DNA of 42,542 bases from Bacteroidota bacterium. GTDB lineage: Bacteria > Bacteroidota > Bacteroidia > Chitinophagales > Chitinophagaceae. A program made the position numbers and the translations under genes. Below the pieces are notes generated by a model. It was not told the origin of the DNA and did not search any database. It saw nothing but the letters and a program-made list of their open reading frames with translations. Positions within the stretch are counted from its first letter, which is position 1. Each line of letters starts with the position of its first letter. Location of the stretch: NCBI GenBank assembly GCA_018267545.1, contig JAFDYG010000501.1:1-42542 (forward strand), read 5' to 3'. Shown piece by piece: positions 1,294-16,935 of this stretch.

Positions 1294-1329
1294 TTGCCCG
1301 TCATTGTGAATAAGGATACCTTAACGCGC

Positions 1330-4300
1330 ATGAACCTATCTCTTATTGCCAACTCGGGTATTCAATTTCACAAGTTTACTATTCGAATAGACCCCAGCCA
1401 AGAGAACATCAGAACCCTAGGGTTCTATGAATTGTTGGACCAGACTAACGATACCATCACACTGCAGTATGCCTACTTTCTGCCCGACGCGGACATCTGG
1501 GTCCCAAAAAAGATTCTAAAAGTCCACGACTACCTCGACGAGAACGATCGCCTCAAAGAAGACATTAACTATAAGGACCTCAAACGATTCCAACTAAAGG
1601 AAGACAAGGAATACTATACCGTCAACGACATCACCAGCTGCATCCAGCTCTTTACTTCGACCGATACCGAAAACAAGTGGATGCCCATTCCCTTCTTCAA
1701 ACAGAACAGCAACAAAAAGAACAACTTCGGTCCCATCGCCTGGGCCCGGATGATGATAAAGGAGCAGACGGACAAGCCCGCAACCCGACCCGACAAGTAC
1801 AATAAAGGCCGCGAATACAAGATCATTCTGGCCTTCGATACAAAGGTCGACGACAAGAGTTCCATCTACTACACGCCCCGGCAACAGGATACGAACGACG
1901 AAGACAATTTCTTCTCATTCAACGACAACGAAGACCTGAACCTGAATTTCTGCGACAACGACTACGAATGTGGATGGGTGGACCGCGCCGTGAAGAATAT
2001 CGTACAAGGCGGCAAGGACGTGGACGAGTTCCCCCGCCTCAAATACCTTGCCTATTATCTGTACCTCCTCAAGTTCCTGGGCAGGACAGGGGGATTCCCT
2101 GAAGTGAGCTTTCACTCGGACCTTGGAACGGCCATCGACGTCGACCTCGTCCTGGACATCGGAAACTCCAATACCTGCGGCATCCTGCTTGAGAGCCCCG
2201 ATTCGAAAAAGCCCTTTCACTTTAATAACGTAAAGAAACTTAAACTCAACGACCTCTCTGCACCAGACAAGGACTACGACGAGTCGTTCTCGATGTTCCT
2301 GGCCTTTGCAGAGGCGAAGTTTGGTGACATAGACTTTCCCCAACATCGCAACTTCCGATGGCCCAGCCTACTACGTCTCGGAAAAGAAGCCGGCCGCCTC
2401 ATCAACAACCATCAACTCGATATCGACAAGGGGATGGAGACCGCCAGCAGCCATTCGAGCCCAAAACGATACTTGTGGGACTCCCAAAAGACGGAAGTCC
2501 CCTGGGAGTTTACCAACTATAGCGGTAAGAACCTCCACGACGCCATCTATTGCGAAGGTATCTCCGAACAGTTTAAGGAAGACGGCGAGTACGCCTTCGA
2601 CGGCGACTTTTCATTCTCTCCCTATTATTCCCGTAAGTCATTGATGACCTTCGTCTTTATAGAGATCATCCTCCACGCAATCGCGCAGACGAATTCACAC
2701 GAGTTCCGTAGCGCACACGGCTTCCCCAACAGACCCCGCAAGCTGAGAAGGCTCACGATCACCTGCCCCACGTCCATCATCCAACGCGAACAGGTAATCC
2801 TTCGCGACTGCGCCGCCGTTGCAGTCCGCGCCCTCAACAGGTTCTTTTCGTCCTCCTTCCTCGGTAAATATGAAGAGGACGCCGAGTCGCCCGAGTTTAT
2901 GGAGATCATCCCCAAACCCAAAGACCTGTCCAAAGGTCTCGATCAACTCGACACAAAAAAGGACTGGATCTACGACGAGGCTACCTGCGGACAGCTAATG
3001 TTCCTCTATTCCGAGATCGCCGTTCGCTACCTCGGCAACGCACAGCTGTTCTTCAACCTCTTTGGCAAGAAACGCGACGACGTCACCAACCGAGATAAAA
3101 AGTCACTGACCATCGGCTCCATCGATATCGGCGGTGGAACGACCGACCTGATGATCTGTGCCTACCAGTATACCGAAGAACAGAAGACCGCCGTACTAAA
3201 ACCACACCCCCTGTTCTGGGAAAGCTTCAATCTCGCCGGCGACGACTTCCTCAAGGAGGTGGTCCAACAGGTAATCCTCGAAGGCGACCTCGACCCCGAG
3301 ACACCCGCATTCCAGGGTTGCACCGGCGTGATCGCCAACGAGGCGCGTAAGAAAGGCGTTACGGGCGTCACCGAAAAGATGCAGCACCTCTTTGGTACCG
3401 ACAGCATGAGCCAGGGACATATGGCGCGGATATACCGGAAGAATTTCATCGTCCAGGTCGCCATCCCCATTGCCCTCCGTTATTTACAACACACGATTGG
3501 CGACGAGGCCGACAAGGAAATAGGGTACGACGAGCTATTTACCGACTCCAAACCCAACCCCGGCCTCATCAATTGGTTCAATACCCAATTCAGCCCCCTG
3601 AAGTTTCAGGACATCCGCTGGAAGCTGTCCAAAAGCAAGATTTCCTATATCGTAGAGACGACCTTCGACGCCCTGCTAAAACAGCTGTCCGCCATCCTGG
3701 CCGCCTATGGCTGTGACTTCATCCTGCTAGCGGGCAAGCCAACCACGATCCCAAAGATCCGCGAGATGCTCATCAAGTATTACCCGGTCTCCCCCGAAAG
3801 GATCATCACCCTGACCAATTACCGCTCCGGCAGGTGGTACCCCTTCGTAGACGAGATCGGCTATATCTCCGACCCCAAGACGATCGTGTCCGTTGGCGCC
3901 CTCGTGTCACTGATGGGCGACAAGTTCAAAAAGCTGGAGAATTTCAAGCTGGACACTTCGCTCCTCCGGAAGGAACTGGTCTCAACCGCCGATTATATTG
4001 GCAACATCGACAAGCATACCCAGCAACTCGAAGAGATCTACCTGGACGGCGAGAACAATATCCACGAGTTACATATTTATTCCCTACCGATACGAATGGG
4101 GTACAAACAGTTACCCAACCAGTCTTACCGCGGTAAACCCATCTATAAGATCCAATTCAACGACGCCGAGATAAAGAAGAAGGTCATGGAACAAGACCCC
4201 TTCCTCGCAGATGTCAACGCCATTGCCCGTGCCGTCGAAAGCTACAAGACCATGCTAAAGTCCAACATGCCCTTCCACGTCCAAATCCAACGAACGCCAT

Positions 4301-4452
4301 CCCAAAGCAAGGAGAATGTTTCCATCGTCAGGGTGCTCGACGCCAATAAGTCTGAGCGGTCGAGGCATCTCCTATCCCTAAATATCATGACCCTCCCCGA
4401 CGAGTACGGCTACTGGCTCGACACGGGTGAGTTCGTACTGAATATCAAATAA
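1330..4452 (+). CDS. srfB: SrfB-like Hsp70/actin-fold ATPase
   Basis: The 1040-residue protein begins MNLSLIANSGIQFHKF, close to what I remember of the N-terminus of SrfB-family (PF07520) proteins. The actin/Hsp70 nucleotide-binding signatures are present in order: phosphate-1 LDIGNSNTCG near residue 276, phosphate-2 SIDIGGGTTDLM near 599, and an adenosine-type LLAGKP near 801. Length is close to known SrfB proteins (about 1000). No signal peptide or membrane helix is seen, so it should act in the cytoplasm as an ATP-dependent remodeller or scaffold. An in-frame GTG at 1282 would add 16 residues but lies inside the inverted-repeat arm, so I prefer the ATG at 1330. It is first in the run, 15 nt before the SrfC-like gene. 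The biochemical role of SrfB is not well established. Confidence 0.8.
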   Translation: MNLSLIANSGIQFHKFTIRIDPSQENIRTLGFYELLDQTNDTITLQYAYFLPDADIWVPKKILKVHDYLDENDRLKEDINYKDLKRFQLKEDKEYYTVNDITSCIQLFTSTDTENKWMPIPFFKQNSNKKNNFGPIAWARMMIKEQTDKPATRPDKYNKGREYKIILAFDTKVDDKSSIYYTPRQQDTNDEDNFFSFNDNEDLNLNFCDNDYECGWVDRAVKNIVQGGKDVDEFPRLKYLAYYLYLLKFLGRTGGFPEVSFHSDLGTAIDVDLVLDIGNSNTCGILLESPDSKKPFHFNNVKKLKLNDLSAPDKDYDESFSMFLAFAEAKFGDIDFPQHRNFRWPSLLRLGKEAGRLINNHQLDIDKGMETASSHSSPKRYLWDSQKTEVPWEFTNYSGKNLHDAIYCEGISEQFKEDGEYAFDGDFSFSPYYSRKSLMTFVFIEIILHAIAQTNSHEFRSAHGFPNRPRKLRRLTITCPTSIIQREQVILRDCAAVAVRALNRFFSSSFLGKYEEDAESPEFMEIIPKPKDLSKGLDQLDTKKDWIYDEATCGQLMFLYSEIAVRYLGNAQLFFNLFGKKRDDVTNRDKKSLTIGSIDIGGGTTDLMICAYQYTEEQKTAVLKPHPLFWESFNLAGDDFLKEVVQQVILEGDLDPETPAFQGCTGVIANEARKKGVTGVTEKMQHLFGTDSMSQGHMARIYRKNFIVQVAIPIALRYLQHTIGDEADKEIGYDELFTDSKPNPGLINWFNTQFSPLKFQDIRWKLSKSKISYIVETTFDALLKQLSAILAAYGCDFILLAGKPTTIPKIREMLIKYYPVSPERIITLTNYRSGRWYPFVDEIGYISDPKTIVSVGALVSLMGDKFKKLENFKLDTSLLRKELVSTADYIGNIDKHTQQLEEIYLDGENNIHELHIYSLPIRMGYKQLPNQSYRGKPIYKIQFNDAEIKKKVMEQDPFLADVNAIARAVESYKTMLKSNMPFHVQIQRTPSQSKENVSIVRVLDANKSERSRHLLSLNIMTLPDEYGYWLDTGEFVLNIK

Positions 4453-4467
4453 ACTTTTTAATCATCT

Positions 4468-7332
4468 ATGGGTAACATAGCGACAGAGATATTAGAAGAT
4501 ATTTCGGGCAGGACCGGTAACCTTGTCAACGAAATAAACGAAGGCGTCAAGTGGGTAGAGAGTTATCTGCAGGAAGACCACGCCGACTCCACCGCGTACG
4601 AACTAAAAAAGTACCGCCGGTACCTCCGCAATATCCAACGGATCATCACCAAAAAGACCGTGATTTCTTTGTTTGGGAAAAGCCAGGTCGGAAAGTCCTA
4701 CCTCGTCGACGGTATCCTTTCCACGACCAAACAAAAAGAGCTAAAGATCCCCGATCCGGTAAAAGGTTCCGACCACTATTTTATCGGTGAACTCAACCCA
4801 CCCGGCGGCAAGGAGTCGACCGGCGTCGTATCCCGATTCTCCATCGAGCGCCACTCCCACTACAACTCGATGCCCATAGAGATCAAACTCCTCTCCCCCA
4901 AGGATATCATCCTCATCCTCTGCGATACCTATTATTCGGACATCAAATACTATAAGGACCCTCTCGAAACAACTCAGATCAAAGACTTTCTGGCGGACCT
5001 ACCGCAAAAGTCCTCGGGCGCAAGACAATACTTCCTCACCGAAGACGACGTGTATGACATCAAGGACTACCTGGAGAAGTATTTCGCCGATAAACCCGTC
5101 ATCCGCAACTTCGAAGACGCCGGGTTCTGGAAGAACGTCTCCAAACTAGTCGACCAGTTCGCCCCCGACCGCTGGGTCTCGGTTTTCGATCTGCTCTGGG
5201 GCGGCAACGAGCGCATCTCCAAACTCTTCACCCTGCTCATCAACGAGCTACAACTACTGGAATTTAGCAATACCGTCCACACCCCCTTCGACGCGCTGCT
5301 GATCAAAGAAGGCAGCATCCTGGACGTCCAGCGGATCTTTGAGCTGGAATCGGACCCCTTCAAACCCATCTCCGTCCGCAAAGCCAATGGCAGGGAACAG
5401 GCGATCAGACGCAGCACACTAGCAGCCCTGACCTATGAAGTCACCATCCCCGTAAAGGAAGAGCTGGCAGAGGAGAAGAAATTCCTAAAAGACGTAGATA
5501 TTCTCGACTTCCCCGGCGCCCGCGGCCGCGAAATGTATCACGAAGGCGATATCCCCTCCCTAAAGACCGAAGATTTCTACAACTTCTACCGGAGGGGTAA
5601 AGTGGCCTATCTCTTTAACCGCTACACCGAGAACTACGAGATAAGCAGCCTGCTATTCTGTATCGACAACGAACAGCTAGAGGTGAAGAACATCCCAGTC
5701 CTTCTCAACAATTGGATCAATTATTATATTGGAGAAAACCCCGAAGAAAGGGCCAGGACGCTCCAGCCCAACATGAACGGAGGCCCGCTGCTGATCGTCT
5801 TTACAAAGGCCAACCTGATGCTGCAGTACAAGCCCGTAGACGCAGACAAACAGTTTGACTACAAATGGGAGACCCGCTTCAAGTCCATCTTTATCAACGA
5901 ATATTGCCAGGTCAACGACTGGCCCTATAATTGGATCAAGACCGACAACCGGGTGGAGAAATTCAAGAATCTATTCCTGCTGAGATCTTTCAACTACCCC
6001 GAGTACATCTACGAAGGCTTCAAGGAAGGTCAGCGCGAGATCGGCATCGCCCCAGGTCGCCAGGAATACATGAACGACCTCCACAAGTCCTTTGTCAACT
6101 ACCCCTTTAATAAGGACCATTTCTACAACCCCGAGGAGTCCTGGTCCGAATTTACCGGCCTCAATAAGGACGGCAGCGAATACATCATCCGAAACCTGAC
6201 CCCGATCGCCAACAATACGATCAGGTCGTTCCGGTACGTCAATCTCCTGGATAAGTTCAAACAAAACGCGATAAAGGCACTTGGCAAGTATTATCACAAC
6301 GACCAAGCCGACGGTCAGATCAGACGAGCCTCCCGCGAAGGCGCCGAGATCCACGCGGTGATGAACATCATCTTTGGAAAGGACGCCTATCACTTCGGTA
6401 GTTTTATCGAACACCTGACGATCGCCGAGACCGAGATCTTCGACTATTATCACCGGGAGCTCAAGGATATCGCGCTGGTCAAGGCTCCAGCGGCCAAACA
6501 ATACCAACTCATCCGCGAAGGCAGTCCCCGTATGCGGAGCGACAAGACCTACGCGGAAAACCTCGAGATCCTCCGCCAGGACTACCACCGCGACACTACG
6601 CAAGAAGCCGAAGAGTTCTTTACGAATATGGGCATCGACCTCATGGAATTGTTCTACGGCGGACTGTATAACCTCAAAAATAACTCCGAAGTCCTGGCCG
6701 AAGGCGCCCGGGACCACTGGTTCAATACCCGTCTGACCCTGGAGAACTTCCAGGAGTTTATCGACCTGGGATTTGAAAAGTCCCTGCTCCTCAAGTTACT
6801 GGATAACCTAAAGGCCAATTTCAACAAGCTCAACCTAGTCAAGATCATCGCCAGCAGCATCCGCGCGCACGTCGACACCCTAAAGCGGGTGGACCTGACC
6901 GAAGATATGATCGCCCACATCACCACCAGCATCATCAACGAGTTTGTAACCTCGGTAGGTTGGTCCTTCTTCTCCGACTCGGACAAGAAGAAGATCGCCG
7001 AAACCAATGCCGCCAACGATCTCCACCTGATCATCCCCGAAGAAGTAGACAGCTTCCATTCCCTGTCCCGAACCGTAGAAGAAGGTGGCGACCAATCCGT
7101 GGAGAAATTGATCGACTTTATGGACCACTTGAGCGAGAACCTCAACCGGATCCCGCTCGACATCGACACCATCAAAAACATTCCGATGATACGGCACTAT
7201 CGCAGGTGGCGCGAGCTGATGAAGATTTCTTTTATCGCCAATTGCGATATCCCGACCTATAACGTGGAAGCCAACCGCCTGCTCGGAGGTCTCCTCGAAA
7301 AGATGAAATTATACGAATTCAACCTGGCTTAA
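4468..7332 (+). CDS. srfC: SrfC-like large GTPase (dynamin-type)
   Basis: This 954-residue protein has a P-loop GKSQVGKS at residues 70-77, a G3-like ILDFPGARGRE around 347-354 and a G4-like VFTKAN at 444-449 (TKxN rather than TKxD). The rest, roughly 560-954, is long and alpha-helical. This matches the putative SrfC effector family (PF10139), whose GTPase domain resembles dynamin-like or septin-like enzymes that act at membranes. No signal peptide or membrane helix is seen. About 250 residues separate the P-loop from the G3 motif, an unusually large insertion. It sits 15 nt after srfB and 13 nt before the SrfA-like gene, so the order is B-C-A. Assignment rests on motifs and synteny. Confidence 0.77.
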   Translation: MGNIATEILEDISGRTGNLVNEINEGVKWVESYLQEDHADSTAYELKKYRRYLRNIQRIITKKTVISLFGKSQVGKSYLVDGILSTTKQKELKIPDPVKGSDHYFIGELNPPGGKESTGVVSRFSIERHSHYNSMPIEIKLLSPKDIILILCDTYYSDIKYYKDPLETTQIKDFLADLPQKSSGARQYFLTEDDVYDIKDYLEKYFADKPVIRNFEDAGFWKNVSKLVDQFAPDRWVSVFDLLWGGNERISKLFTLLINELQLLEFSNTVHTPFDALLIKEGSILDVQRIFELESDPFKPISVRKANGREQAIRRSTLAALTYEVTIPVKEELAEEKKFLKDVDILDFPGARGREMYHEGDIPSLKTEDFYNFYRRGKVAYLFNRYTENYEISSLLFCIDNEQLEVKNIPVLLNNWINYYIGENPEERARTLQPNMNGGPLLIVFTKANLMLQYKPVDADKQFDYKWETRFKSIFINEYCQVNDWPYNWIKTDNRVEKFKNLFLLRSFNYPEYIYEGFKEGQREIGIAPGRQEYMNDLHKSFVNYPFNKDHFYNPEESWSEFTGLNKDGSEYIIRNLTPIANNTIRSFRYVNLLDKFKQNAIKALGKYYHNDQADGQIRRASREGAEIHAVMNIIFGKDAYHFGSFIEHLTIAETEIFDYYHRELKDIALVKAPAAKQYQLIREGSPRMRSDKTYAENLEILRQDYHRDTTQEAEEFFTNMGIDLMELFYGGLYNLKNNSEVLAEGARDHWFNTRLTLENFQEFIDLGFEKSLLLKLLDNLKANFNKLNLVKIIASSIRAHVDTLKRVDLTEDMIAHITTSIINEFVTSVGWSFFSDSDKKKIAETNAANDLHLIIPEEVDSFHSLSRTVEEGGDQSVEKLIDFMDHLSENLNRIPLDIDTIKNIPMIRHYRRWRELMKISFIANCDIPTYNVEANRLLGGLLEKMKLYEFNLA

Positions 7333-7345
7333 AACGATACAGCGT

Positions 7346-9883
7346 TTGGACAACACGATCATATATTCGGCTAAGATCCAAAACTACACCCCCATCGTCT
7401 GGAAGGGCCAGCCCGTATATAGACACTATACCAAGCTCAGGAATCACCTCAAACAACACCTGGGACCCGAGTTCGCTTCCTTCTTCGCCGAGCCGCACAT
7501 CTCGGACACAGATACGGCGAAGTCCCCCGGCGCTTCCTGGAGTTCGGATGCGCTAAGCAATAAGCCGGTTCCCTATAACGAGCTACCCAGGGAGCAACAA
7601 GACCGGGCCAACCGGATCATACAAGAACGCCTCCACACACTCCGCGAGCATTCGCAGCGATTGCTGGAGTCGGAGAACGCCGAGGATAATGCATGGGGGC
7701 AGCTGATTACGCGGTCGCTCGAACTGCCCGACGACTCGCACATCTTAGTGGATGGGGATAATATCGTCCTCGTCGGCTGGGGTTTCCAACTAGCCAAAGA
7801 GAAGCAAGGAGGGTACAATTTTAAAAAGCACTTTCCGTGGAAGCCACCCGTGCAGGAGGCGCAAGCGCCAGCTGCGCCAGAACCACCCGTGCCACCAACT
7901 CCTCTCCCCCCGCCCACCCAACTGGTAGAGCCACCAACTCCACCCACCCCATCCGTACCACCACCACCAGTCCGGCCCCAAAACCATCCGCCCGCCCCAC
8001 CAAGCCCACCTCCCCCACCCCGTATCACACCCACCGTGGAGAAACGTCCCTGGTGGCGCAGATGGTGGTGGATACTTCTATTACTATTATTACTCCTACT
8101 CCTCCTGCTCTTCCTCCGTCAGTGCAAAACCGAAACGCACATCCTCCCCGCCCAGCCGGGAAGAATCATCCCGATCGACACGGCCAAAATCATCCAGGAC
8201 CCAGATACCGTCCGCTCCATCGTTTCCGACCGCCTAAACGTCGCCCTCGTCGGCCAAAACACCGACATCAACGCATTCGCCCAGGCATTCAAACAAGCCT
8301 ACCCCAGCGCCGACTACCAGATCATCTATTATGATACCATCACCAAACGGCTCCAGCTCCAGGTCCCCGTTGCAGAACGCGAGAAGCTAAAAACAGAGTT
8401 GCCATCGAAAATCCCCGCCTTCGAAATGCTCATCTGGGACGAAAGCATCTTCCACCATAGCTATGTCCCAAACGACCCCGGCTTTAAAGACCTCAACGAG
8501 TCCTGGTACCACCAGGAAGTAAAAGCAATCCAAGCCTGGGATAAAACCCGCGGCAACCCCGACCTCGTCGTGGCCATCGTCGACGACGGCTTCGACCTCA
8601 GCCACCCCGAGTTTCAAGGCAAAGTGGTCCGCCCCTGGAACGTCCCCGCCTATTCCTCCCAGGTAAACACCGCGCACAACGCCTTTCACGGCACACACGT
8701 AGCCGGTATCGCACTGGCACTCGCCGACAACGGCATCGGCGTCGCCGGCATCGCCCCCAACTGCAAGTTCATGCCAGTCCAGGTAAGCGACCGCAACGGC
8801 GTGATGAGCAGCACATCCATCATCGACGGACTATTATACGCCATCAACCACGGCGCCAACGTGATCAATATGTCACTCGGCATGTCCTCCCCTCCCGGCA
8901 TCAGCACCATGCCCATCAGCAGACAGGCCGACATCGTCGCACACGCCTTTAAAAGCGAAGAGAAATTCTGGGACCAACTCTTCCAGGCCGCCTATAAAAA
9001 AAACATCATTACCGTCGTGGCAGCAGGTAACGACAACGTCATGATCGGACTCGACCCAATGCAAAGAAGCCGCTACGCCATCAAAGTCTCCGCCGTAGAC
9101 CCCAGAGAAACAAAAGCCTCCTTTAGCAACTATGGCGCCTACTCCACGATCAGCGCCCCCGGCGTACAAATCTATAGCAGCGTACCCGGTAACCAGTTCA
9201 AATACCTGAACGGCACCAGCATGGCCTCCCCCATCGTCGCCGGCGGCATCGCCCTGATCAAAAGCGCCAATCCCGCACTAAACTACGACCAGATAGTAGA
9301 CCTCATACAGTCCACCGGCATCCCGGTGAACAGCGGCACCCAGCACCTCGGCCCCATCATCCAACTGGACCGCGCCGTTGGCGTAGCCAATACCAACCGT
9401 CAAAAGATGCCCCGAGCCGGCTGCCCCAACAATCAGCGGCAGATAGACAGCCTGTTACAAGAGATCGAAAAACTCAAACGCGAGTGTCCCGACAGCACGA
9501 CCAAAGATACCCTGCACATCCCTCCGCATGCCAAAGACTATACGTTTGCGGTAGGCCGCTGGAAGAGCTCCAGCTATATATATAGTACGATCGACGGCAA
9601 GCAAGTCGCCCTTTACTTCGACTTCTTCGCCAACGGCACCGGTAAGATCACCCTGATCAAACCGGACAATACTGAGTGCGGAGCCCCACTTTCGCTCGCC
9701 CTCAAACCCGACCAATTCCTGGTCGACCAGACAACATCAGCAGCCTGCTCACCTCCCCCGGAAAAATACTATCCCTACCGCTTCGCCTGCAGCCCCGACT
9801 CCACCGGCTGCGCCGAATGCGTAGCCCAGGGCAAGCAGACAGGCGGGAATCGATTCAAGTTCAAGCTGATAAAAATTCAATAA
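7346..9883 (+). CDS. SrfA-like membrane protein with built-in subtilisin (S8) protease
   Basis: The start is TTG at 7346; no ATG or GTG lies in frame nearer the previous stop and the next in-frame Met is far inside. Order of parts in 845 residues: cytoplasmic domain 1-165 with DSHILVDGDNIVLVGWGF (cf. a SrfA N-terminal motif I recall); Pro-rich linker 167-230; a Leu-rich membrane helix about 241-257 preceded by KRPWWRR, so N-in/C-out; a pro-region-like segment 285-370; S8 domain about 395-660 with D413 (IVDDG), H448 (HGTHVAG), oxyanion N562 (AAGNDN) and S625 (GTSMASP); a coiled coil near 690; and a cysteine-containing beta domain 715-845 (VGRWKSSS..., end FKFKLIKI) like the SrfA C-terminal domain as I remember it. 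The catalytic set is complete, so an active periplasmic protease is likely. The SrfA link is from memory; the S8 call is firm. Confidence 0.82.
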   Translation: MDNTIIYSAKIQNYTPIVWKGQPVYRHYTKLRNHLKQHLGPEFASFFAEPHISDTDTAKSPGASWSSDALSNKPVPYNELPREQQDRANRIIQERLHTLREHSQRLLESENAEDNAWGQLITRSLELPDDSHILVDGDNIVLVGWGFQLAKEKQGGYNFKKHFPWKPPVQEAQAPAAPEPPVPPTPLPPPTQLVEPPTPPTPSVPPPPVRPQNHPPAPPSPPPPPRITPTVEKRPWWRRWWWILLLLLLLLLLLLFLRQCKTETHILPAQPGRIIPIDTAKIIQDPDTVRSIVSDRLNVALVGQNTDINAFAQAFKQAYPSADYQIIYYDTITKRLQLQVPVAEREKLKTELPSKIPAFEMLIWDESIFHHSYVPNDPGFKDLNESWYHQEVKAIQAWDKTRGNPDLVVAIVDDGFDLSHPEFQGKVVRPWNVPAYSSQVNTAHNAFHGTHVAGIALALADNGIGVAGIAPNCKFMPVQVSDRNGVMSSTSIIDGLLYAINHGANVINMSLGMSSPPGISTMPISRQADIVAHAFKSEEKFWDQLFQAAYKKNIITVVAAGNDNVMIGLDPMQRSRYAIKVSAVDPRETKASFSNYGAYSTISAPGVQIYSSVPGNQFKYLNGTSMASPIVAGGIALIKSANPALNYDQIVDLIQSTGIPVNSGTQHLGPIIQLDRAVGVANTNRQKMPRAGCPNNQRQIDSLLQEIEKLKRECPDSTTKDTLHIPPHAKDYTFAVGRWKSSSYIYSTIDGKQVALYFDFFANGTGKITLIKPDNTECGAPLSLALKPDQFLVDQTTSAACSPPPEKYYPYRFACSPDSTGCAECVAQGKQTGGNRFKFKLIKIQ

Positions 9884-9907
9884 CAAACAACAACTAAAAA
9901 CTAACAT

Positions 9908-10879
9908 ATGGCAACCAACAATAAGAAGCTCACTTTCTCCGACTTCCTCAGCTATCTGGGGATGGCCGCTTGTGTGCTCTTTCTCTTCAAAGGAATGATA
10001 TATGTTCTCCACGGAAACGTCGTACTCTGTAGCTTTATATGCGCAGCCGTCTTGCTCGTCTTGCTGTTCTTTCCGACTCAACTTGTCAAATTCAAGCAGA
10101 AAAGTCAAAAAGAACCCAATCATGCACCAGAGATCTCGCTTAGCATTGTTTACGCTGTATTGGCCTTCGCCATGTTCCCGTTCATCTTTCATTCGGTAGA
10201 CGTGGAGTACACCCGGAAAGATGAAATCAAAAAGGCCGGCCTCGATAAGGTAGCCGCGATTCAGGAACTCCGAACCAATTATACCCTCGCGGTACGGAAT
10301 GAAGCCAATAAAAACAAAGTTGCCGCCCTGACGGAAATGAATAATTACCTGACAGCCTTTCAACCCGCCAAAGAAGGCTATAAAAGACAAATTGAGAGAC
10401 GATTCCCTGGAGCGGTTAATTTCACCGCAAACGATATGTACATCGCGAGCCGGATCAAGGTGCTGGCTTCCCGCGATAGCGCGACTATATCGGATAAGCT
10501 AACCCTCGATTCCCTCGACAAGGAATTCGACGAATATCAGCAAAAAGCGACTTCGACTTTCGAAAATTGGAGGCTGCTAACCATCGGCTATTACTACGAC
10601 GGTTGCGATAGTATGTATAAGAAATACTATGCCGTTGCCCTGACGAAGCTCCCTTCTTTCTCTTTCACGAAATCCTATGACAAAGGCAGGAGATTCGATA
10701 ACCCATTCGAATCATTGAGAGACGCGTCTATGATGATCCTTTTATTGGTGATATTCCTCAATCTCCTAGTGCACGCGTGTATCCTGGCTCCATATTTAAT
10801 CGCAGGCAGATACCACCAAAGGCTAAAAAGGAATACATCCGATTATGCACCACCGCCCGGCGCGGTAAAAAACCTGTAA
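9908..10879 (+). CDS. Polytopic membrane protein, unknown
   Basis: The 323-residue product has two membrane helices near the N-terminus (about 15-33 and 38-57), a third at about 77-96, and a fourth near the C-terminus (about 275-297). A mainly helical, charged soluble domain of about 175 residues lies between the third and fourth helices. I recognise no family. It starts 24 nt after the protease gene and 30 nt before the GTPase gene, inside the same run. Two things suggest it could be the membrane partner of that GTPase: the neighbouring position, and the lack of any membrane helix in the GTPase. That pairing is inference. Confidence 0.7.
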   Translation: MATNNKKLTFSDFLSYLGMAACVLFLFKGMIYVLHGNVVLCSFICAAVLLVLLFFPTQLVKFKQKSQKEPNHAPEISLSIVYAVLAFAMFPFIFHSVDVEYTRKDEIKKAGLDKVAAIQELRTNYTLAVRNEANKNKVAALTEMNNYLTAFQPAKEGYKRQIERRFPGAVNFTANDMYIASRIKVLASRDSATISDKLTLDSLDKEFDEYQQKATSTFENWRLLTIGYYYDGCDSMYKKYYAVALTKLPSFSFTKSYDKGRRFDNPFESLRDASMMILLLVIFLNLLVHACILAPYLIAGRYHQRLKRNTSDYAPPPGAVKNL

Positions 10880-10909
10880 ATTCTATAATCTCATCATTCA
10901 ATTCACTAT

Positions 10910-12070
10910 ATGGGCATAAAATTATCAGCAGCAGACCATATCGATTTCATCCGTAAGGGTGCCTATCCCGATGCGAAGATCAAACAACTCATGGACGATG
11001 GTACACTCAGTGGTAGCGAACTGGTTAAACTAGGCGTATTTACCCAGGAAAGACTGGACCAACTCCTATATGTATCTCCTCAGCAGCATATGGATCATAT
11101 TAAGGCAGGAAACTATAGTCAGGACAAAATACGGGCCTTATTGGAGGAAGGGATAATTCAGGAGCACGACCTCATCGGCCAAAGGATACTGTCTCCCGAA
11201 GCACTGAACGAGATCATGAAGAGACCCGTAAATGCCATGATGCTCGACTTCGACTGGAAAGACGTCCCCAAATTAATGGAGGATAGAGTTGACGTGTTCG
11301 TCTTAGGAGTAGCAGGATCTGGAAAGTCCACGTTCATGTCTGGCCTCATCTATTATGCCGAAAAAGCCGGCAGAATGAAGGCACTCATAGAAAACACAAC
11401 CGGATACAAATATTCTCAGGATTTAATAACGGCTGTAGAAAACAGATTACTCCTCCCGGCTACACCAGTGGAATATATTCAATATATGGCCTGTGATTTT
11501 AAAGACGACAGCAGTAAAATTCATCCACTGACCTTTATCGAAATGAGTGGCGAAGTCTTTCAAAAATGTTTTAGCGTTTCGAAAGAGCAATTGCCGGAAA
11601 AATTTAAGCAGTATTTTTTCGAAAGTCCCAATAATAAGATCATTTTTCTTACGATCGATTATAATATCCACGAAGAAAAAAGACGTATGGCTTACTCCCA
11701 GCGCTCACGCTTCGACTTTATTCTTCAATTCTTTGCAAAACATGGGACACTGGCAAGCACCGAAGCTATTTGCATTCTAATTACAAAATGGGACGAAAAC
11801 AAAGACCAGTCCGAAGACGCCGCAGCCAGATTCTTAAAACAGGAATACCTGGGCTTATATAATCTATGCAGAGAATATGAGCGGACTTATGGTTTAAAGT
11901 TCATCGTATTCCCTTTTAGTTTAGGAAAATTTGACGAAAGAAAGCGATACGAGTACAACGATCGGGACTCCGCAAGATTGTTCAATTGGCTATGCTCCTT
12001 TTCCTCTATCCGAATTCCGCCCAAAAAAGCCGGCTGGTTCTCTCGGATGTTTGGAAGCAATGAAAAATAA
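10910..12070 (+). CDS. P-loop GTPase with duplicated N-terminal helical module
   Basis: The 386-residue protein has a P-loop GVAGSGKST at 133-141 and a G4 motif ITKWDEN around 291-297 (T292, K293, D295), so it is a TRAFAC-type GTPase. I see no clear canonical DxxG; the segment FIEMSGE around 208-214 may take that place. The N-terminal 105 residues are an internal duplication: about 10-54 (starting HIDFIRKG) and 60-104 (starting HMDHIKAG) align closely, each a helical unit of about 45 residues. It resembles the single GTPases of bacterial conflict-type operons (DO-GTPase-like), but the exact family is uncertain. No membrane helix. It lies 30 nt after a membrane-protein gene and 23 nt before a single-pass protein gene. 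Confidence 0.72.
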   Translation: MGIKLSAADHIDFIRKGAYPDAKIKQLMDDGTLSGSELVKLGVFTQERLDQLLYVSPQQHMDHIKAGNYSQDKIRALLEEGIIQEHDLIGQRILSPEALNEIMKRPVNAMMLDFDWKDVPKLMEDRVDVFVLGVAGSGKSTFMSGLIYYAEKAGRMKALIENTTGYKYSQDLITAVENRLLLPATPVEYIQYMACDFKDDSSKIHPLTFIEMSGEVFQKCFSVSKEQLPEKFKQYFFESPNNKIIFLTIDYNIHEEKRRMAYSQRSRFDFILQFFAKHGTLASTEAICILITKWDENKDQSEDAAARFLKQEYLGLYNLCREYERTYGLKFIVFPFSLGKFDERKRYEYNDRDSARLFNWLCSFSSIRIPPKKAGWFSRMFGSNEK

Positions 12071-12093
12071 AATCAGAACAATACCCATCTTCG

Positions 12094-13794
12094 ATGAAAC
12101 TTAGAGATAATACAACCTGCGGATTGATAGCCTGGGGAACCAAACAAGGAGTAGAGGAGTTTTTTGCCTGTAACTTCCTCGAGAAAGAAACAAGGAGAGA
12201 CTATGGCTTGTACGATATCCGTCTCAGTTTTCAATTTTCGGGCCCAAAGTTTTCGTTTTATTGCATAGAACACTTCCCAGACTACAGCCGCATCACCATC
12301 TACCGGACCATCATCGACTGGGTGGGACGCGCGGGCTTCTACGCAATGACGATAGTCATTCCCGCCGGGCTGACTTTTAGGGAAAATAATAATATAGGAG
12401 AACTACTGAGCGTCCTTTCCGACAATTACTGGAGCAGATATATTGCCTCCGGGCCACGGCCCAATATGATTGACCACGAGGTTATCGAGGATAGTCAGCT
12501 CTTCGCAGCAATCATCGACGACAATAAGTATCGACTAATAGCAAATGAAGAAGATCCCCGTTCATCGGACGGAGAGGAGGTTTGTATTGTTCGATATAAG
12601 GATGAAACAGCCCTATCTGCTATATTCGAGAATTATGAAGGAGAAGAGTTTTTCAAGTATAAAAGGGTTTTCTTACTACCGACTGAAACGCCAACAATCA
12701 CTAGCAAACTTAGCGAGGTCAGTCTCACACCCTCTCCAAAATATTATTTCAAAATAGTAGCCCTGGAAGAGAGTTCGGGGGACTATCTCTTTAATATTTA
12801 CTATTCCTGTATAAGAAATGGGCAACAGGTGCTGAAGAATGAATGTTCCTACGAAGGAGATTATAATATAAAAACCGGGATTACCAGGCGCGATCAGCTA
12901 AAGATCACCCTGGAAAAAACGGGGTATCACCAAAAGGACATTGACCAGGACTATCTGTTTAATAAATTACACTCCGGCATAACTTCCAGGGAACATCCTG
13001 AAAAGGTACCCGTCCTTCTTAAAAAAAAACAGACGGACCAGGAACAGCAGCAATCATCTGGCGGCAATTCTAGCGAAAAGAAGACCGGGGGAATAATGGC
13101 TTGGTTTCGTGGGCTGAATACCGCTCCCAAAGCGGCCATTTGCACTCTACTCTTTTTTGGCACCATCGCCCTGGCCTCCCTTATCATAACCAATACTTCG
13201 GGTTCTGGCAAAAACAAAGAGGATAAAAAAGATACTACACATAATGGTCAACAACAAGGCAAAAAAAATCAGCAAGAGATAAAGCCGATAGCTCCTCAAG
13301 ATCTTGAGTTCATCGAAGATAGCACAGCTATGGCAAGAGTCCTTAATGATTATAAAAACCGTTTAATCCATTACGACGATGCCACCGAGCTATTAGTAAA
13401 AATAAAGAATCAATGGGGCGATGAAGGAGATAAAGAAAAGTATCAGGCGTACATAAAACAATTCAACTTTTTTAAATCTCAAATAGAAAACATTTACCAA
13501 CAACGACTCGCCGAGATAGCCAAATCCAACAAGGATAATAAAGACAATAATAAAGGCAATCAAAATTCTGGCTCCAATCACAACACTACATCACCCGGCA
13601 ACGCGACTACCGAACAAGGTAGGCTAAACGAAATAAACGCATTGTTCAATCTCGTAAAAAATTCTCAAAAAAAGGACGAAGTAAGAAAAGCACTAACGGT
13701 TATAAAAAGTTTAAAAACCCAACTCAAAAAACCCCACAGAGAAGTTGATGACGAAATACAAATTTTAAACGTCAAACTTGAAGCATTGCCATAA
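12094..13794 (+). CDS. Single-pass membrane protein with GTPase-associated-like N domain
   Basis: The 566-residue product has a globular N-terminal part (1-about 310), a membrane helix at about 346-366, and a C-terminal part that is Lys/Asn/Gln-rich and largely helical or disordered. A low-complexity linker rich in N, K, D and G runs about 479-505. The N-terminal segment with ITIYRTIIDWVGRAGFYAMT and an N-I-G-E-L-L helix looks like a domain seen beside GTPases in Bacteroidota conflict operons; I hold this only weakly. There is no signal peptide, so the N domain should be cytoplasmic, next to the GTPase encoded 23 nt upstream. The gene is visibly more A+T-rich than the srf genes before it, so it may have a different history. 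Confidence 0.68.
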   Translation: MKLRDNTTCGLIAWGTKQGVEEFFACNFLEKETRRDYGLYDIRLSFQFSGPKFSFYCIEHFPDYSRITIYRTIIDWVGRAGFYAMTIVIPAGLTFRENNNIGELLSVLSDNYWSRYIASGPRPNMIDHEVIEDSQLFAAIIDDNKYRLIANEEDPRSSDGEEVCIVRYKDETALSAIFENYEGEEFFKYKRVFLLPTETPTITSKLSEVSLTPSPKYYFKIVALEESSGDYLFNIYYSCIRNGQQVLKNECSYEGDYNIKTGITRRDQLKITLEKTGYHQKDIDQDYLFNKLHSGITSREHPEKVPVLLKKKQTDQEQQQSSGGNSSEKKTGGIMAWFRGLNTAPKAAICTLLFFGTIALASLIITNTSGSGKNKEDKKDTTHNGQQQGKKNQQEIKPIAPQDLEFIEDSTAMARVLNDYKNRLIHYDDATELLVKIKNQWGDEGDKEKYQAYIKQFNFFKSQIENIYQQRLAEIAKSNKDNKDNNKGNQNSGSNHNTTSPGNATTEQGRLNEINALFNLVKNSQKKDEVRKALTVIKSLKTQLKKPHREVDDEIQILNVKLEALP

Positions 13795-13811
13795 CCTTAA
13801 TACCCCCAAGT

Positions 13812-14561
13812 ATGAATCAAAAACTACTCATATTCCTCATTATAATGGCCGTAGCAGCCACCGCCATTGGCCTCTCTCAAGTCGACTGGTCCCAAAAAAC
13901 CAAAACACAACCAACGGTAGTCCAAACGAAATACTACAATCGGCTCGAAACCGAGATCGTGGCCCTTGGCAACGCGCCCTGGAACAAATTCGAATACAAC
14001 TCCTTGAAAAATCGCATCCAACAGAATGCCGAAGCCACGCCAGTCCCCCTAATCACCAAAGAACAACAAGAAAACCTAACCTCTCATCTCAATTCGGTCT
14101 ATTTCGGTCTACTGGAAAAAGAAATCATATCCGTCTGCAAGACGGCCGACCCTTCGGATGCCAAAGCAAAAACGCTAAACCAGGAACTCGGCGTCTTCCC
14201 CTCCGGCTTCCAGACACAAACCATCAAGACCCTCTCCGGATACCTCCGCACCTTCATGTCCGTCCCCTCCATACACTACAACGTCAGCAACTATACCGAA
14301 AACAGCATCTACGAATCCGCCACCAGTAACAGCTATACCAGCCGAATCCAGTCGGTTTTCGTCACCGATAACGTAAAGGATAATTCCAAGATAAAATCCC
14401 TGCTAAGGGACGACGAGAGTAAGATCAATATGCAACGAAAACACGACGACGTCTTTCGAAAACTCTGCCGCGACAGCCTACTCCGCAGATTCCCCTGTAG
14501 CGACTTCCGCCCCAACAACTTTTATTATAACAAATGTAAGCTCCAGGAATGCAACCTATAA
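13812..14561 (+). CDS. Exported/anchored cysteine-containing protein, unknown
   Basis: The 249-residue product starts with a hydrophobic segment (about 5-22) that is either a signal peptide or an N-terminal anchor. The remainder is soluble and helical. Cysteines sit in ISVCKTAD near residue 110 and in a C-terminal cluster (KLCRDS, FPCSDF, YNKCKLQEC), which suggests disulphides in the periplasm. It begins 17 nt after the previous stop and its last 13 nt overlap the next gene. I recognise no family. Its cysteine use and position suggest that it works with the two coiled-coil proteins that follow. Confidence 0.65.
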   Translation: MNQKLLIFLIIMAVAATAIGLSQVDWSQKTKTQPTVVQTKYYNRLETEIVALGNAPWNKFEYNSLKNRIQQNAEATPVPLITKEQQENLTSHLNSVYFGLLEKEIISVCKTADPSDAKAKTLNQELGVFPSGFQTQTIKTLSGYLRTFMSVPSIHYNVSNYTENSIYESATSNSYTSRIQSVFVTDNVKDNSKIKSLLRDDESKINMQRKHDDVFRKLCRDSLLRRFPCSDFRPNNFYYNKCKLQECNL

Positions 14562-15736
14562 GAATAATCATCTTATCTCTGTTCGCAATGTCAGTCCTGG
14601 TCCATGTAGCCCCAGCACAATCTATTACATTGAAAAAGACCGAGTTTGACAACATGAACGAGAAAATGGCAAAACTGCTGCAACAGCATGCCGACCAGAA
14701 AAACGACAGCCTCGACAAAGAGAAGAGTTATAAAAAACTTCAAGAACAGTGGACCGCAGACTCCATCCAATCGACGAAAGCCTTAGCCCCGGTCAACGCC
14801 GAACTGGCCCGGAAGAACGCCGCCCAGACACTACTCGAACAACAAGCCCAACAAGTCACAACCCAGCTACAACAAGACCAAAAGGAGATAGCCCGCATCA
14901 GAATGGATTCCAACGCGCGCGCAAAAGAGATAGAAGAAAAAGATAAAACCCTCGCTTCTGCCAATAAACAGCTCCTCGACAAAGGGCCCATCCAGCAACA
15001 AAAGAAAGAGCTGGAACAAAAAATCACCCTCCATCGACAGAAGAACGAAGAGTTGGCCGGACTGAAAAAGCAAAAAGAAGCGCAGCTGCCCGACCTGACG
15101 GCCAAAAGTCAGAAAATAGCCACTAGCCTTGCCACTCTCAACGCATCCCTCGCTGACGCTGCAAGGGCCAAAAGCAATAGCGACCAACTAAGCAATAGCT
15201 TACTGACAGACTTCAATAAAGACGTCACAGCCGTCACTTCAGAAACCTCGTTTTCGACAAAGTCGGTCGGCGACCTAAAAACCCGGGGAGAAAGGCTAGC
15301 CACCTATTTTAGAGATAACGAAACCTTCAAAAAGGCAATGGGTAGGCTCGACCAATATGCCTCCCTTTCCGCTGCCATTCAAAAAAGCCAGACCATCCTC
15401 CAACAACCGTATACGACCGAAACCTGTAACGCCGCATTGGACCAATTGAAAAAAGAGACACCCCTGACCCCCGAACAAAAAGTCATTACCGACAAATACA
15501 GGATTGCGCTGGAAGGTTATTGCAAGGTGAACACCGACTGCTATAATAAGGCCACTAAGGCAAAGGAATATATTCCTGACGCAAGGGTTGTCGCGGCCGG
15601 CTTATTTTCTGACCTATTACAACGCGTAGACCGCTCCAACTACCCTTTCCTGTACAACGAAGTCCAGCGACTGCTGGATAACAACGAAAAGAAACTCCCA
15701 TTCGACAGCAAAATACCAAAAACGACCTGTCAATGA
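14549..15736 (+). CDS. Secreted long coiled-coil protein, paralogue A
   Basis: The 395-residue product has a signal peptide (1-about 24, VHVAPAQ) and then a long coiled coil, about 30-235, full of Gln, Lys, Glu and Leu. A helical C-terminal domain follows, with the segments ETPLTPEQKVITDKY, EGYCKVNTDC (C-x5-C), NYPFLYNEV and a final TTCQ. The next gene has the same layout and the same landmark residues, so the two are tandem paralogues. The start overlaps the preceding gene by 13 nt and the stop overlaps the next ATG (ATGA). Such proteins could form periplasmic rods or spacers. That role is inferred only from shape. Confidence 0.72.
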   Translation: MQPIRIIILSLFAMSVLVHVAPAQSITLKKTEFDNMNEKMAKLLQQHADQKNDSLDKEKSYKKLQEQWTADSIQSTKALAPVNAELARKNAAQTLLEQQAQQVTTQLQQDQKEIARIRMDSNARAKEIEEKDKTLASANKQLLDKGPIQQQKKELEQKITLHRQKNEELAGLKKQKEAQLPDLTAKSQKIATSLATLNASLADAARAKSNSDQLSNSLLTDFNKDVTAVTSETSFSTKSVGDLKTRGERLATYFRDNETFKKAMGRLDQYASLSAAIQKSQTILQQPYTTETCNAALDQLKKETPLTPEQKVITDKYRIALEGYCKVNTDCYNKATKAKEYIPDARVVAAGLFSDLLQRVDRSNYPFLYNEVQRLLDNNEKKLPFDSKIPKTTCQ

Positions 15737-16932
15737 AAACTAGTTTACTCATACTCCTGATCATAGCCGGCGCCTTACAAACTGCAGTCGGGCAGGCTAC
15801 ATTACCCATACCAAGATACAATGAGATACAAGATAGTATTAACACAATCCTTCCACGCCAAAACCAAACCCTCAAAGACGCCAATAGCCGCCTAAAAAAG
15901 TCGATTGCTGAACTACAAAAAAAGATCGAGTCCCAATCCTCTCAGTCCACAAAGACGCTCCAAAGCAAAAACGAACAAATCGGCAAGGCCGACACACGCA
16001 TAACACAATTGACAGCCGACGTCCAGCAAAAGAAAACCTCATCCGCCGACCTCCGCGCAAGAATCAAACGATTTACAGACGTCGACTCCCCCAACCTTGT
16101 CAGAGAGATCCAATCCAGACAGGCTAGCATCGACAAACTGACAAAGGACGCCACCGACCATGACAAAGACGCCGGCATCCTCAAATCATTGACAGATTCC
16201 CTCAACAACGTATCAAAAGACTCCTCAGCCCTGATCACCCAGATCGCTGAGTTAGACAAGAATATCAACGCCACCATCGCCCAACAAAAGAAAGACGTGC
16301 AGGATACCCTGGCAAAATCCGTACAACTGGATATCAACCCAGACCGAAAAAATTACGATCGCCTGGTCCAACTCACAATCGAAGACCTTTCGGAAAGATC
16401 AAAATCCATCCTTTCCGATACCTCCTTTAACGAAGAAAGAGCCGCAAGCCTAAAAGCATACGTCACTACCATCTCCCCCTTCCTACCCAAAAAACCCGAG
16501 ATCGACCTGGACGGATACCTATCCCTATGCAAAGCCGTCCAAAGCGCCAAACACGCGGTGCAACACCCCTACGACTCGGTAGCCTGCCCCAATATCCTCG
16601 AATCGCTCAGACAACAACTTTCCGTCAGCACCACCCTAACCGCCCCACAAAAAGAGACGGTAAACAAATGGGCCAGACTGATCTCCAATTACTGTTCGGC
16701 AACCGCCACCTGCCGCTCGACGCTCGAAGACGCCCGTACCGACATCAACATCAACCAGCAGGAGGAAGCATATAAAAACCTGTTGACGGCAAGCAAGAAT
16801 GCAACCCTTAATGAATATCCCTTCCTCAAAACAGAAATGGAAAAAATGGCCCTTAAAGCCAGGGCTTTCAAAGGCAAAGGGAAGGAATTCGTCGACGAAA
16901 GCGCTATAAAAGAGGTGCAGTGTAAACAATAG
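15733..16932 (+). CDS. Secreted long coiled-coil protein, paralogue B
   Basis: The 399-residue product has a signal peptide (1-about 21, LQTAVGQ), a long coiled coil over about 40-190, and a C-terminal helical domain. Landmarks shared with paralogue A are: a cysteine before a helical segment (VACPNILESL), a T-L-T-x-x-Q-K motif, a C-x5-C pair (NYCSATATC), YPFLKTEM and a final VQCKQ. Identity is low outside these points, so the duplication is old and both copies have been kept. It is coupled to paralogue A by ATGA. It could assemble with A through the coiled coil; the shared cysteines suggest disulphides in the periplasm. Confidence 0.72.
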   Translation: MKTSLLILLIIAGALQTAVGQATLPIPRYNEIQDSINTILPRQNQTLKDANSRLKKSIAELQKKIESQSSQSTKTLQSKNEQIGKADTRITQLTADVQQKKTSSADLRARIKRFTDVDSPNLVREIQSRQASIDKLTKDATDHDKDAGILKSLTDSLNNVSKDSSALITQIAELDKNINATIAQQKKDVQDTLAKSVQLDINPDRKNYDRLVQLTIEDLSERSKSILSDTSFNEERAASLKAYVTTISPFLPKKPEIDLDGYLSLCKAVQSAKHAVQHPYDSVACPNILESLRQQLSVSTTLTAPQKETVNKWARLISNYCSATATCRSTLEDARTDININQQEEAYKNLLTASKNATLNEYPFLKTEMEKMALKARAFKGKGKEFVDESAIKEVQCKQ

Positions 16933-16935
16933 CAT

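What the first reader, a model, noticed from the sequence alone, without database searches (positions are those of the whole stretch)
7346..9883. SrfA-like protein with a complete subtilisin domain between its membrane helix and C-terminal domain
The N-terminal part (about 1-165), the poly-Leu helix and the last 130 residues look like SrfA, but a full S8 domain (D413, H448, N562, S625) lies between. In the usual SrfA as I remember it no protease is present. The topology (KRPWWRR before the helix) puts the protease in the periplasm and the SrfA N-domain in the cytoplasm, beside SrfB and SrfC. This would turn a poorly understood srf module into a cytoplasm-gated periplasmic protease.
Basis: partly seen in the sequence, partly recalled or inferred. 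Interest (0 to 1): 0.85.

Follow-up and report, generated by a model that had tools for sequence, protein, structure and literature searches.

The report
Subtilisin fused into SrfA membrane protein
A poorly understood bacterial protein trio (SrfA, SrfB, SrfC) has, in this bacterium and its relatives, a complete protein-cutting enzyme built into its membrane part, and some other bacteria have attached a different cutting enzyme in a similar place, which suggests that the trio may control proteases outside the inner membrane.

Summary
Observation confirmed. ORF 7346-9883 (845 aa) is SrfA-like at both ends (residues 1-165 E=1.4e-15, 715-845 E=1.9e-12; whole protein 121.7 bits, under the family's 150 cut-off), with a full Peptidase_S8 domain between (E=8.8e-48), directly after srfB and srfC. 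D413, H448, N562, S625 are invariant in 9 of 9 aligned proteins. It is no one-off: all 9 readable SrfB loci of this lineage encode SrfA-N plus S8, on one fully supported SrfB branch. The three enterobacterial loci opened have no protease, but three of seven alphaproteobacterial loci carry an S1 (MarP-like) protease on an SrfA-N/helix protein, and one a vWA-like domain. SrfA thus looks like a bitopic adaptor with exchangeable outer payloads. Best model: SrfB (actin/Hsp70-type motif) and SrfC (P-loop) dock on SrfA-N and control a membrane-tethered pro-subtilisin. Gating, autoprocessing, substrate and trigger are untested; the prodomain rests on a model. My paper searches (open-licence PMC, capped listings) showed no account of the fusion; the Srf/Tag gene association is already printed (PMC3608642).

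The parts
1282..4452 (+). srfB, 1056 aa; actin/Hsp70-type motifs (LVLDIGNSN at 289, DIGGGTTD at 615)
   Evidence: PF07520 E=1.2e-193; motifs
4468..7332 (+). srfC, 954 aa; P-loop GKSQVGKS at 70, DFPG at 347, GTPase-like
   Evidence: PF10139 E=1.4e-123; motifs
7346..9883 (+). SrfA::S8 fusion protein, 845 aa (TTG start)
7346..7840 (+). SrfA N-terminal domain (residues 1-165), predicted cytoplasmic
   Evidence: NF040486 profile 3-147, E=1.4e-15
7841..8050 (+). Pro-rich linker (residues about 166-235), probably disordered
   Evidence: pLDDT 31-51 per block
8057..8122 (+). single transmembrane helix (residues 238-259) after KRPWWRR
   Evidence: helix in model; hydropathy
8189..8449 (+). putative I9-like prodomain (residues 282-368), beta-alpha-beta-beta-alpha-beta; block pLDDT 83-92 over 291-360, 61 and 72 at its ends
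   Evidence: model m0a465f572c22; Foldseek match of the whole model to unautoprocessed pro-subtilisin E 3whi; no sequence match to a known prodomain
8564..9319 (+). Peptidase_S8 catalytic domain (residues 407-658): D413, H448, N562, S625
   Evidence: PF00082 E=8.8e-48; invariant 9 of 9; thermitase residue 1 aligns to residue 373
9548..9880 (+). SrfA C-terminal domain (residues 735-845), beta-barrel, perhaps lipocalin-like
   Evidence: NF040486 profile 312-427 E=1.9e-12; model pLDDT 85; only weak Foldseek hits, best E=0.011, none at 0.001
9908..10879 (+). membrane protein, 323 aa (about 3-4 hydrophobic helices); homologues in 6 of 8 other S8 loci
10910..12070 (+). GTPase-like protein, 386 aa, weakly related to DO-GTPase1/2; homologues in 8 of 8 other S8 loci (one only at E=0.001)
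   Evidence: PF19975 E=1.1e-4 and PF19993 E=4.6e-4, both below cut-off
12094..13794 (+). 566-aa protein with one TM helix; matches in 5 of 8 other S8 loci
13812..14561 (+). 249-aa protein with N-terminal hydrophobic segment
14549..15736 (+). 395-aa protein with N-terminal hydrophobic segment, coiled-coil-like, paralogue of the next gene
15733..16932 (+). 399-aa protein with N-terminal hydrophobic segment, coiled-coil-like
16936..18144 (+). second SrfA-N domain protein (402 aa) followed by Ig-like domains
   Evidence: local SrfA-N profile E=9.6e-8, no NCBIfam hit; MG4 just over cut-off, CarboxypepD_reg and Big_1 below it
18141..19475 (+). RRKRRWWW-TM helix plus possibly Ig-like domains, 444 aa; fused to the preceding gene in Runella
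   Evidence: Pfam hits all below cut-off

Best explanation
SrfA is a bitopic inner-membrane adaptor of the SrfABC module. Its N-domain sits in the cytoplasm and docks on the complex of SrfB (actin/Hsp70-type ATPase) and SrfC (P-loop, GTPase-like); a linker and one helix carry a lineage-specific payload across the membrane. In this lineage the payload is a membrane-tethered pro-subtilisin (I9-like prodomain, then S8), in 5 of 9 proteins followed by the SrfA C-domain. A change in the SrfB/SrfC complex (assembly, clustering or an NTP-driven shift) lets the zymogen mature at about residue 373, which would free the active protease from its membrane tether into the periplasm. Shown here: the architecture, intact and conserved catalytic residues, operon conservation, co-occurrence with SrfB, and joining of S1 proteases to SrfA-N elsewhere. 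Inferred: topology, prodomain function, NTPase activity of SrfB and SrfC, and docking (SrfA-SrfB-SrfC binding is published only for a Xenorhabdus trio, as far as I saw). Not shown: gating, autoprocessing, trigger, substrate.
For: S8 with D/H/N/S invariant in 9 of 9. SrfA at both ends. All 9 readable SrfB loci of the lineage encode SrfA-N plus S8 and their SrfB proteins are one side of a 100/100 branch. In the phylum sample SrfA-N was found in 2 of 395 genomes, the two that hold SrfB in the SrfB search of 395 phylum genomes (one search scored at most 9 candidates per genome). SrfA-N/helix/S1 proteins in three alphaproteobacterial lineages, a MarP-like S1 as a separate neighbour in two more. K+R in the 20 residues before the helix exceed those after it in 8 of 9, one tie. 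SrfB D[IV]GGGT[TS]D in 17 of 18 and SrfC GxSQxGKS in 18 of 18. Residues 282-368 have prodomain topology, and the whole model matches pro-subtilisin E 3whi (E=1.5e-11, 410 columns with gaps, rmsd 8.3). Xenorhabdus SrfA, SrfB and SrfC form a heteromeric complex (PMC6950479, passages seen).
Against: No experiment links NTP turnover to proteolysis. The prodomain has no sequence hit and rests on a six-row AlphaFold model of mean pLDDT 66 with a poorly modelled catalytic core. Enterobacterial SrfABC, the kind studied at the bench, showed no protease in the three loci opened, so proteolysis is not a universal output. Four of nine S8 proteins lack the C-domain. None of the nine passes the SrfA_fam cut-off, and one (L042) has no SrfA_fam hit at all, only a local-profile hit. 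The Runella helix is weakly hydrophobic (missed, mean 1.65). My pattern for the first actin/Hsp70 motif matched 3 of 18 SrfB, and SrfC shows no consistent NKxD-type motif. Rhizobium and Gluconobacter loci show no annotated protease.
Confidence: 0.5

Rival explanations
1. Maturase reading: SrfABC plus the 8 downstream genes is an envelope machine and SrfA::S8 is its constitutive, membrane-anchored processing protease (as mycosin is for ESX), cutting the operon's own exported proteins; the fusion serves only to localise it.
For: Best NCBIfam relative of the S8 part is T7SS mycosin (E=1e-37, below its cut-off), recalled as a membrane-anchored protease of that apparatus. The operon carries several exported-looking or anchored proteins and a second SrfA-N protein.
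Against: Mycosin's own anchor is C-terminal (recalled), here it is N-terminal. The three exported-looking partners (13812, 14549, 15733) find matches in only one or two of the other loci, while S8 is strongly conserved. A prodomain-like element points to controlled activation.
Confidence: 0.25
2. Conflict or anti-phage reading: the cluster is a mobile abortive-type or envelope-defence system in which SrfB, SrfC and the GTPase sense invasion and the protease is the effector.
For: Patchy spread: 0 of 32 other genomes of the genus searched hold SrfB, 2 of 395 in the phylum sample. The Runella copy lies on a plasmid next after a BREX system. The window GTPase and a protein beside the G582 locus resemble DO-GTPases below cut-off, a class placed in conflict systems (PMC7159879, section 27 read). 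G582 also has a CHAT-like (below cut-off) and an AAA protein next door.
Against: PADLOC finds nothing in SrfB or SrfC and, in SrfA::S8, a generic subtilase (2.4e-19) and a marginal IetS row (0.0091). Ten neighbours in other loci gave hits for 2 of 10, none better than E=3.7e-7. One BREX neighbour in nine loci may be chance. No GAP1 row appeared.
Confidence: 0.15
3. Degenerate or decorative domain: the S8 domain is kept but not used as an enzyme, for example as a binding module.
For: Inactive peptidase domains are described in effector positions of other conflict systems (PMC7159879 passages).
Against: Triad and oxyanion Asn invariant in 9 of 9, the eight others being 33-51% identical to the window's; S1 His, Asp and Ser also present by eye in 5 of 5 alphaproteobacterial proteins.
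Confidence: 0.05

Closest known systems
SrfABC of Enterobacterales (SrfA family NF040486; SrfB PF07520; SrfC PF10139)
   Same: SrfA N-domain and C-domain (full-length SrfA_fam match of the Rahnella protein), a TM helix (detected in both Rahnella proteins, not in Ewingella's); adjacent srfB and srfC
   Different: No protease in the three loci opened (SrfA 449-456 aa); gene order A-B-C there, B-C-A here; eight further genes here
Alphaproteobacterial SrfA-N/helix/S1 proteins (Cereibacter, Mesorhizobium, Methylobacterium plasmids)
   Same: SrfA-N, one helix, outer serine protease with its triad, beside SrfB/SrfC
   Different: Trypsin/MarP-like instead of subtilisin; a protease-less SrfA is also present; in Cereibacter a separate gene carries the C-domain; SrfA_fam hits are weak in Mesorhizobium (7e-4) and Methylobacterium (1.9e-5)
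Mycosin (TIGR03921), membrane-anchored subtilase of type VII secretion
   Same: Best NCBIfam model of the S8 domain (E=1e-37); membrane tether
   Different: 130 bits against a 279 cut-off; N-terminal anchor with a cytoplasmic SrfA domain; ESX genes were not searched for
TagQRST-PpkA threonine phosphorylation pathway
   Same: Genes of this kind neighbour srfBC in host-associated Deltaproteobacteria (PMC3608642, section 16 read); a homologous vWA/ABC/permease/FGE quartet follows srfC in Cereibacter, Gluconobacter and UR115
   Different: No such hit in any of the 11 operon proteins; assigning the alphaproteobacterial quartet to PpkA/TagTSR rests on recalled domain content
DO-GTPase conflict systems (Kaur et al. 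2020, PMC7159879)
   Same: A GTPase-like gene of weak DO-GTPase similarity is in the operon
   Different: No GAP1 row; no occurrence of 'Srf' in that paper's main text

Membership tests
SrfA family (NF040486) | Score above the curated cut-off of 150 bits | tested here: not met
   121.7 bits, two stretches; so a relative, not a named member
SrfA family (NF040486) | N-domain and C-domain homology | tested here: met
   E=1.4e-15 and 1.9e-12 for the separate ends
SrfA family (NF040486) | Next to srfB and srfC | tested here: met
   PF07520 and PF10139 directly upstream
SrfA family (NF040486) | Complex with SrfB and SrfC | not testable with these tools
   Published for Xenorhabdus (PMC6950479, passages)
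Peptidase S8 (subtilase) | Domain above gathering score | tested here: met
   163.5 bits against 21.8
Peptidase S8 (subtilase) | Catalytic Asp, His, Ser and oxyanion Asn | tested here: met
   D413, H448, S625, N562 invariant 9 of 9
Peptidase S8 (subtilase) | I9-type prodomain before the catalytic domain | tested here: inconclusive
   Right topology and position in the model, no sequence hit
T7SS mycosin | Score above TIGR03921 cut-off | tested here: not met
   130.1 against 278.75 bits
DO-GTPase conflict system | DO-GTPase above cut-off plus GAP1 | tested here: not met
   22.0 and 20.4 bits against 27; no GAP1 row in the Pfam scans of the 11 operon proteins (that Pfam holds GAP1 models is recalled)

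The most novel reading that the evidence does not exclude
SrfABC is a general NTPase-driven transmembrane switch whose SrfA-N/helix adaptors carry interchangeable outer payloads (S8, S1, vWA-like, Ig-like, lipocalin-like), used to fire proteases in the periplasm on envelope damage or attack, sometimes wired to a TagQRST/PpkA-like damage sensor without a type VI secretion system.
Probability: 0.25. Interest if true: 0.85.

Novelty: new variant of a known kind. Interest (0 to 1): 0.62.

Why it matters
PMC3608642 (2013, section 16 read) says that the function of srfB and srfC is still unclear; passages I saw in later papers speak of swarming (PMC4219756) or a toxin (PMC6950479). A catalytic payload in one branch, and an unrelated one joined to the same N-domain in another, gives the module a measurable biochemical output (proteolysis, S625A as control) and a modular logic: constant NTPase core, constant adaptor, exchangeable outer domain. 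That makes the old question 'what do SrfB and SrfC do' testable by asking what switches the protease on.

Tried and rejected
Rejected: chance or misassembly (same arrangement in nine genomes or plasmids). Rejected: a lone oddity of this genome (9 of 9). Rejected: S8 in SrfA generally (none in three of three opened enterobacterial loci or in the plain alphaproteobacterial copies scanned). Not pursued as a claim: anti-phage system, since PADLOC and neighbours are too weak. Led nowhere: SrfB in IMG/VR by single-protein patterns, none; SrfA::S8 alignment in IMG/VR gave 137 relatives, 80 kept, none matching before residue 366 (a few run on past S8 to residues 748-774), but both patterns used lay in S8, so the scan could find little else, and those loci were not read further; PDB sequence search gave none for SrfB and only E>=0.49 rows for SrfC; prodomain sequence search, nothing of note; VIA-align not available. 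L003, a Caenarcanales contig, matched only through S8 (27% identity) and its genome has no SrfA_fam hit. G451 (17 bits, 27 positions) was dropped as chance. G833 was dropped from the fusion count because its contig ends just after srfB. Klebsiella (114 records in each SrfB plasmid search) and Salmonella records were listed but not opened; 12 plasmid records were opened, out of 142 counted in each of two overlapping searches.

Full report
What was checked. The ORF at 7346-9883 is real and opens 13 nt after srfC. Pfam places SrfB at 1282-4452, SrfC at 4468-7332 and Peptidase_S8 at residues 407-658 of the third protein. Scanned apart, its first 165 and last 131 residues each match NCBIfam SrfA_fam (E=1.4e-15 and 1.9e-12), at profile positions 3-147 and 312-427; the protease sits in the gap between them. 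The whole protein reaches 121.7 bits against a 150-bit cut-off, so 'SrfA-like' is the right word.

Anatomy. Residues 1-165 form the SrfA N-domain; then a Pro-rich linker; KRPWWRR and a helix at about 238-259; a beta-alpha-beta-beta-alpha-beta domain at 282-368; S8; and a C-terminal beta-barrel. The AlphaFold model from six sequences has mean pLDDT 66: mostly fair to good for the N-domain, the 282-368 domain (83-92 per block over 291-360, 61 and 72 at its ends) and the barrel, poor for the linker and parts of the catalytic core. Foldseek matches it to subtilisins, among them unautoprocessed pro-subtilisin E 3whi (E=1.5e-11, 410 columns with gaps, rmsd 8.3). The mature start of thermitase aligns to residue 373. 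So a zymogen with its prodomain between helix and enzyme is likely; the prodomain has no sequence match to known ones. A separate model of the C-domain (four sequences, pLDDT 85) resembles lipocalin-like proteins and designed barrels only weakly (best E=0.011, none at 0.001).

How common it is. SrfB is rare and patchy here. Counting the window's own genome each time: 1 of 58 relatives, so none of the 32 other genomes of the genus; 2 of 395 of the phylum sample; 5 of 396 of the order sample over the cut-off; 4 of 395 of the class sample. Around a Cytophagales MAG it is 2 of 59. The samples overlap. With a Runella plasmid they give ten distinct SrfB loci. One (G833) ends with its contig just after srfB. 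In 9 of the 9 others an SrfA-like protein carries S8. Of these nine proteins eight hit SrfA_fam at E below 0.01, none over its cut-off, and one (L042) not at all; L042 and L043 hit my local SrfA-N profile, which did not contain them, at 2.8e-17 and 1.9e-18. Five keep the C-domain; L026, L027, L042 and L043 end with S8. Genome names are withheld; I take the phylum to be Bacteroidota from the Runella and Cytophagales relatives and the type IX sorting domains in the window. D413, H448, N562 and S625 are invariant in all nine. In the phylum sample SrfA-N was found in 2 of 395 genomes, G000 and G214, the two with SrfB (one search scored at most nine candidates per genome). Of 18 SrfB proteins put in a tree, the nine S8 rows are one side of a 100/100 branch; the S1 rows need two changes and the protease-less rows three; ten rows have a deviant composition. 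Left out of that tree: the second Mesorhizobium record, two further Cereibacter records, G833 and the cut Jannaschia copy.

Other lineages. In three opened enterobacterial loci (two Rahnella, one Ewingella) SrfA is 449-456 aa and no protease is annotated nearby. Among seven distinct alphaproteobacterial plasmid loci, three have SrfA-N/helix/S1 fusions (Cereibacter, SrfA_fam 9.8e-17; Mesorhizobium, 7e-4; Methylobacterium, 1.9e-5); two have a MarP-like S1 protease as an unfused neighbour (UR115, divergent; Jannaschia, upstream of its SrfA); two have no annotated protease (Rhizobium, Gluconobacter). By eye the S1 His, Asp and Ser are present in all five aligned. UR115 has SrfA-N (1.3e-33) joined to a region that hits vWA-bearing families only weakly (best 1.9e-4; that those families hold vWA is recalled), and Jannaschia has a separate annotated vWA gene beside its protease. 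A Cereibacter gene encodes the SrfA C-domain apart, behind an N-terminal hydrophobic segment. So the N-domain plus helix looks constant and what lies outside exchangeable. Rhizobium, sister to the S1-bearing Mesorhizobium in the tree, keeps a 309-aa SrfA-N/helix protein without S1, which reads as a loss.

The rest of the operon. Genes from 1282 to 19475 run in one direction almost without gaps. Homologues of the GTPase-like gene (10910-12070) lie in all eight other S8 loci, in G582 only at E=0.001 and on the opposite strand; homologues of the membrane protein (9908-10879) in six of eight; of 12094-13794 in five of eight. The 402-aa product of 16936-18144 has a second SrfA-N domain (E=9.6e-8 with a 22-row profile that did not contain it; no NCBIfam hit) followed by Ig-like domains; in Runella one 1101-aa protein covers it and the next gene.

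How it most likely works. SrfB has the actin/Hsp70 phosphate-2 motif in 17 of 18 sequences (my phosphate-1 pattern in 3 of 18); SrfC has GxSQxGKS in 18 of 18 and D[FL]PG in 16 of 18, but no consistent NKxD-type motif by my pattern. That these motifs mean ATPase and GTPase is established knowledge of those folds, not a result here. In Xenorhabdus the three proteins co-precipitate and run as one complex (PMC6950479, passages). Lysines and arginines before the helix outnumber those after it in 8 of 9 S8 proteins, with one tie; the Runella helix is weak (1.65; missed). So the N-domain should be cytoplasmic, beside SrfB/SrfC, and the protease periplasmic. The simplest mechanism is that the NTPase complex controls clustering or strain of the tethered zymogen, which then matures and leaves the membrane. 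Every step after 'architecture' is inference.

Trigger. PMC3608642 (section 16 read) reports srfBC in host-associated Deltaproteobacteria beside tagQ, ppkA and, in most, tagR/S/T, all but one of these genomes lacking type VI secretion genes, plus a 'Hap-like' and a 'LigA' gene. The Xenorhabdus paper also places type VI control genes near srfABC. TagQRST-PpkA senses outer-membrane damage in Pseudomonas (PMC10482370 and PMC11881912, passages). Cereibacter, Gluconobacter and UR115 have a homologous vWA-ABC-permease-FGE set after srfC, which by recalled domain content resembles this sensor. The 'Hap-like' gene may be an SrfA-N/S1 relative and the 'LigA' gene an Ig-like relative of 16936-18144; I did not see those sequences. 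None of the 11 operon proteins here hits such a family, so the link is a lead.

Prior print. Searches (open-licence PMC only; listings capped, for instance 20 of 26, 15 of 28 and 8 of 1,740) showed no account of a protease fused to SrfA. In one search four papers hold SrfB, SrfC, protease and 'virulence factor' together; I opened two (section 16 of PMC3608642; passages of PMC4219756) and saw no fusion there; the other two I saw only in the listing. Runella's protein is annotated merely 'S8 family serine peptidase' and the Cereibacter one 'serine protease'.

Noticed in passing
window 21678-24539 (+): 953-aa protein with P-loop and NACHT-like motifs by eye, then about seven hydrophobic helices; Pfam and PADLOC gave no hit at E=0.01.
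   Followed up: partly
window 19484-20224 (-): 246-aa protein with an HEYAH (HExxH-type) motif by eye, possibly a metallopeptidase, convergent with the Srf operon.
   Followed up: no
window 33746-37282 (+): DUF1800 and DUF1501 genes side by side, the second with a below-cut-off match to the Por secretion tail.
   Followed up: no
window 37300-41703 (-): 1467-aa protein with 11 PKD stretches and a CHU_C type IX sorting domain.
   Followed up: no
L034 7822-11727: Gluconobacter plasmid with four consecutive SrfA-N proteins before srfB and no annotated protease (three of the four were in the profile's seed).
   Followed up: partly
L024 5200-10547: Convergent genes next to the G582 SrfABC locus: CHAT-like and DO-GTPase2-like (both below cut-off) and AAA; a further SrfA-N ORF of 905 aa lies about 15 kb from SrfA::S8.
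   Followed up: partly
L006 2185-16739: BREX genes (brxC, pglZ, brxL) next before srfB on the Runella plasmid.
   Followed up: partly
window 8123-8125 (C260 of SrfA::S8) and several homologues: A Cys follows the TM helix closely in several SrfA-N proteins (RQC, TKC, NQC, PAC); possible lipidation or disulfide, not counted, unexplained.
   Followed up: no
L026 13173-16863 and L042 9793-13884: Two loci carry extra small TM proteins and a protease-less SrfA-N/helix protein just before SrfA::S8.
   Followed up: partly
L033 6655-7836: A second gene annotated 'serine protease' lies two genes upstream of the SrfA-N/S1 gene in Methylobacterium; it matches the separate S1 proteases of UR115 and Jannaschia.
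   Followed up: partly
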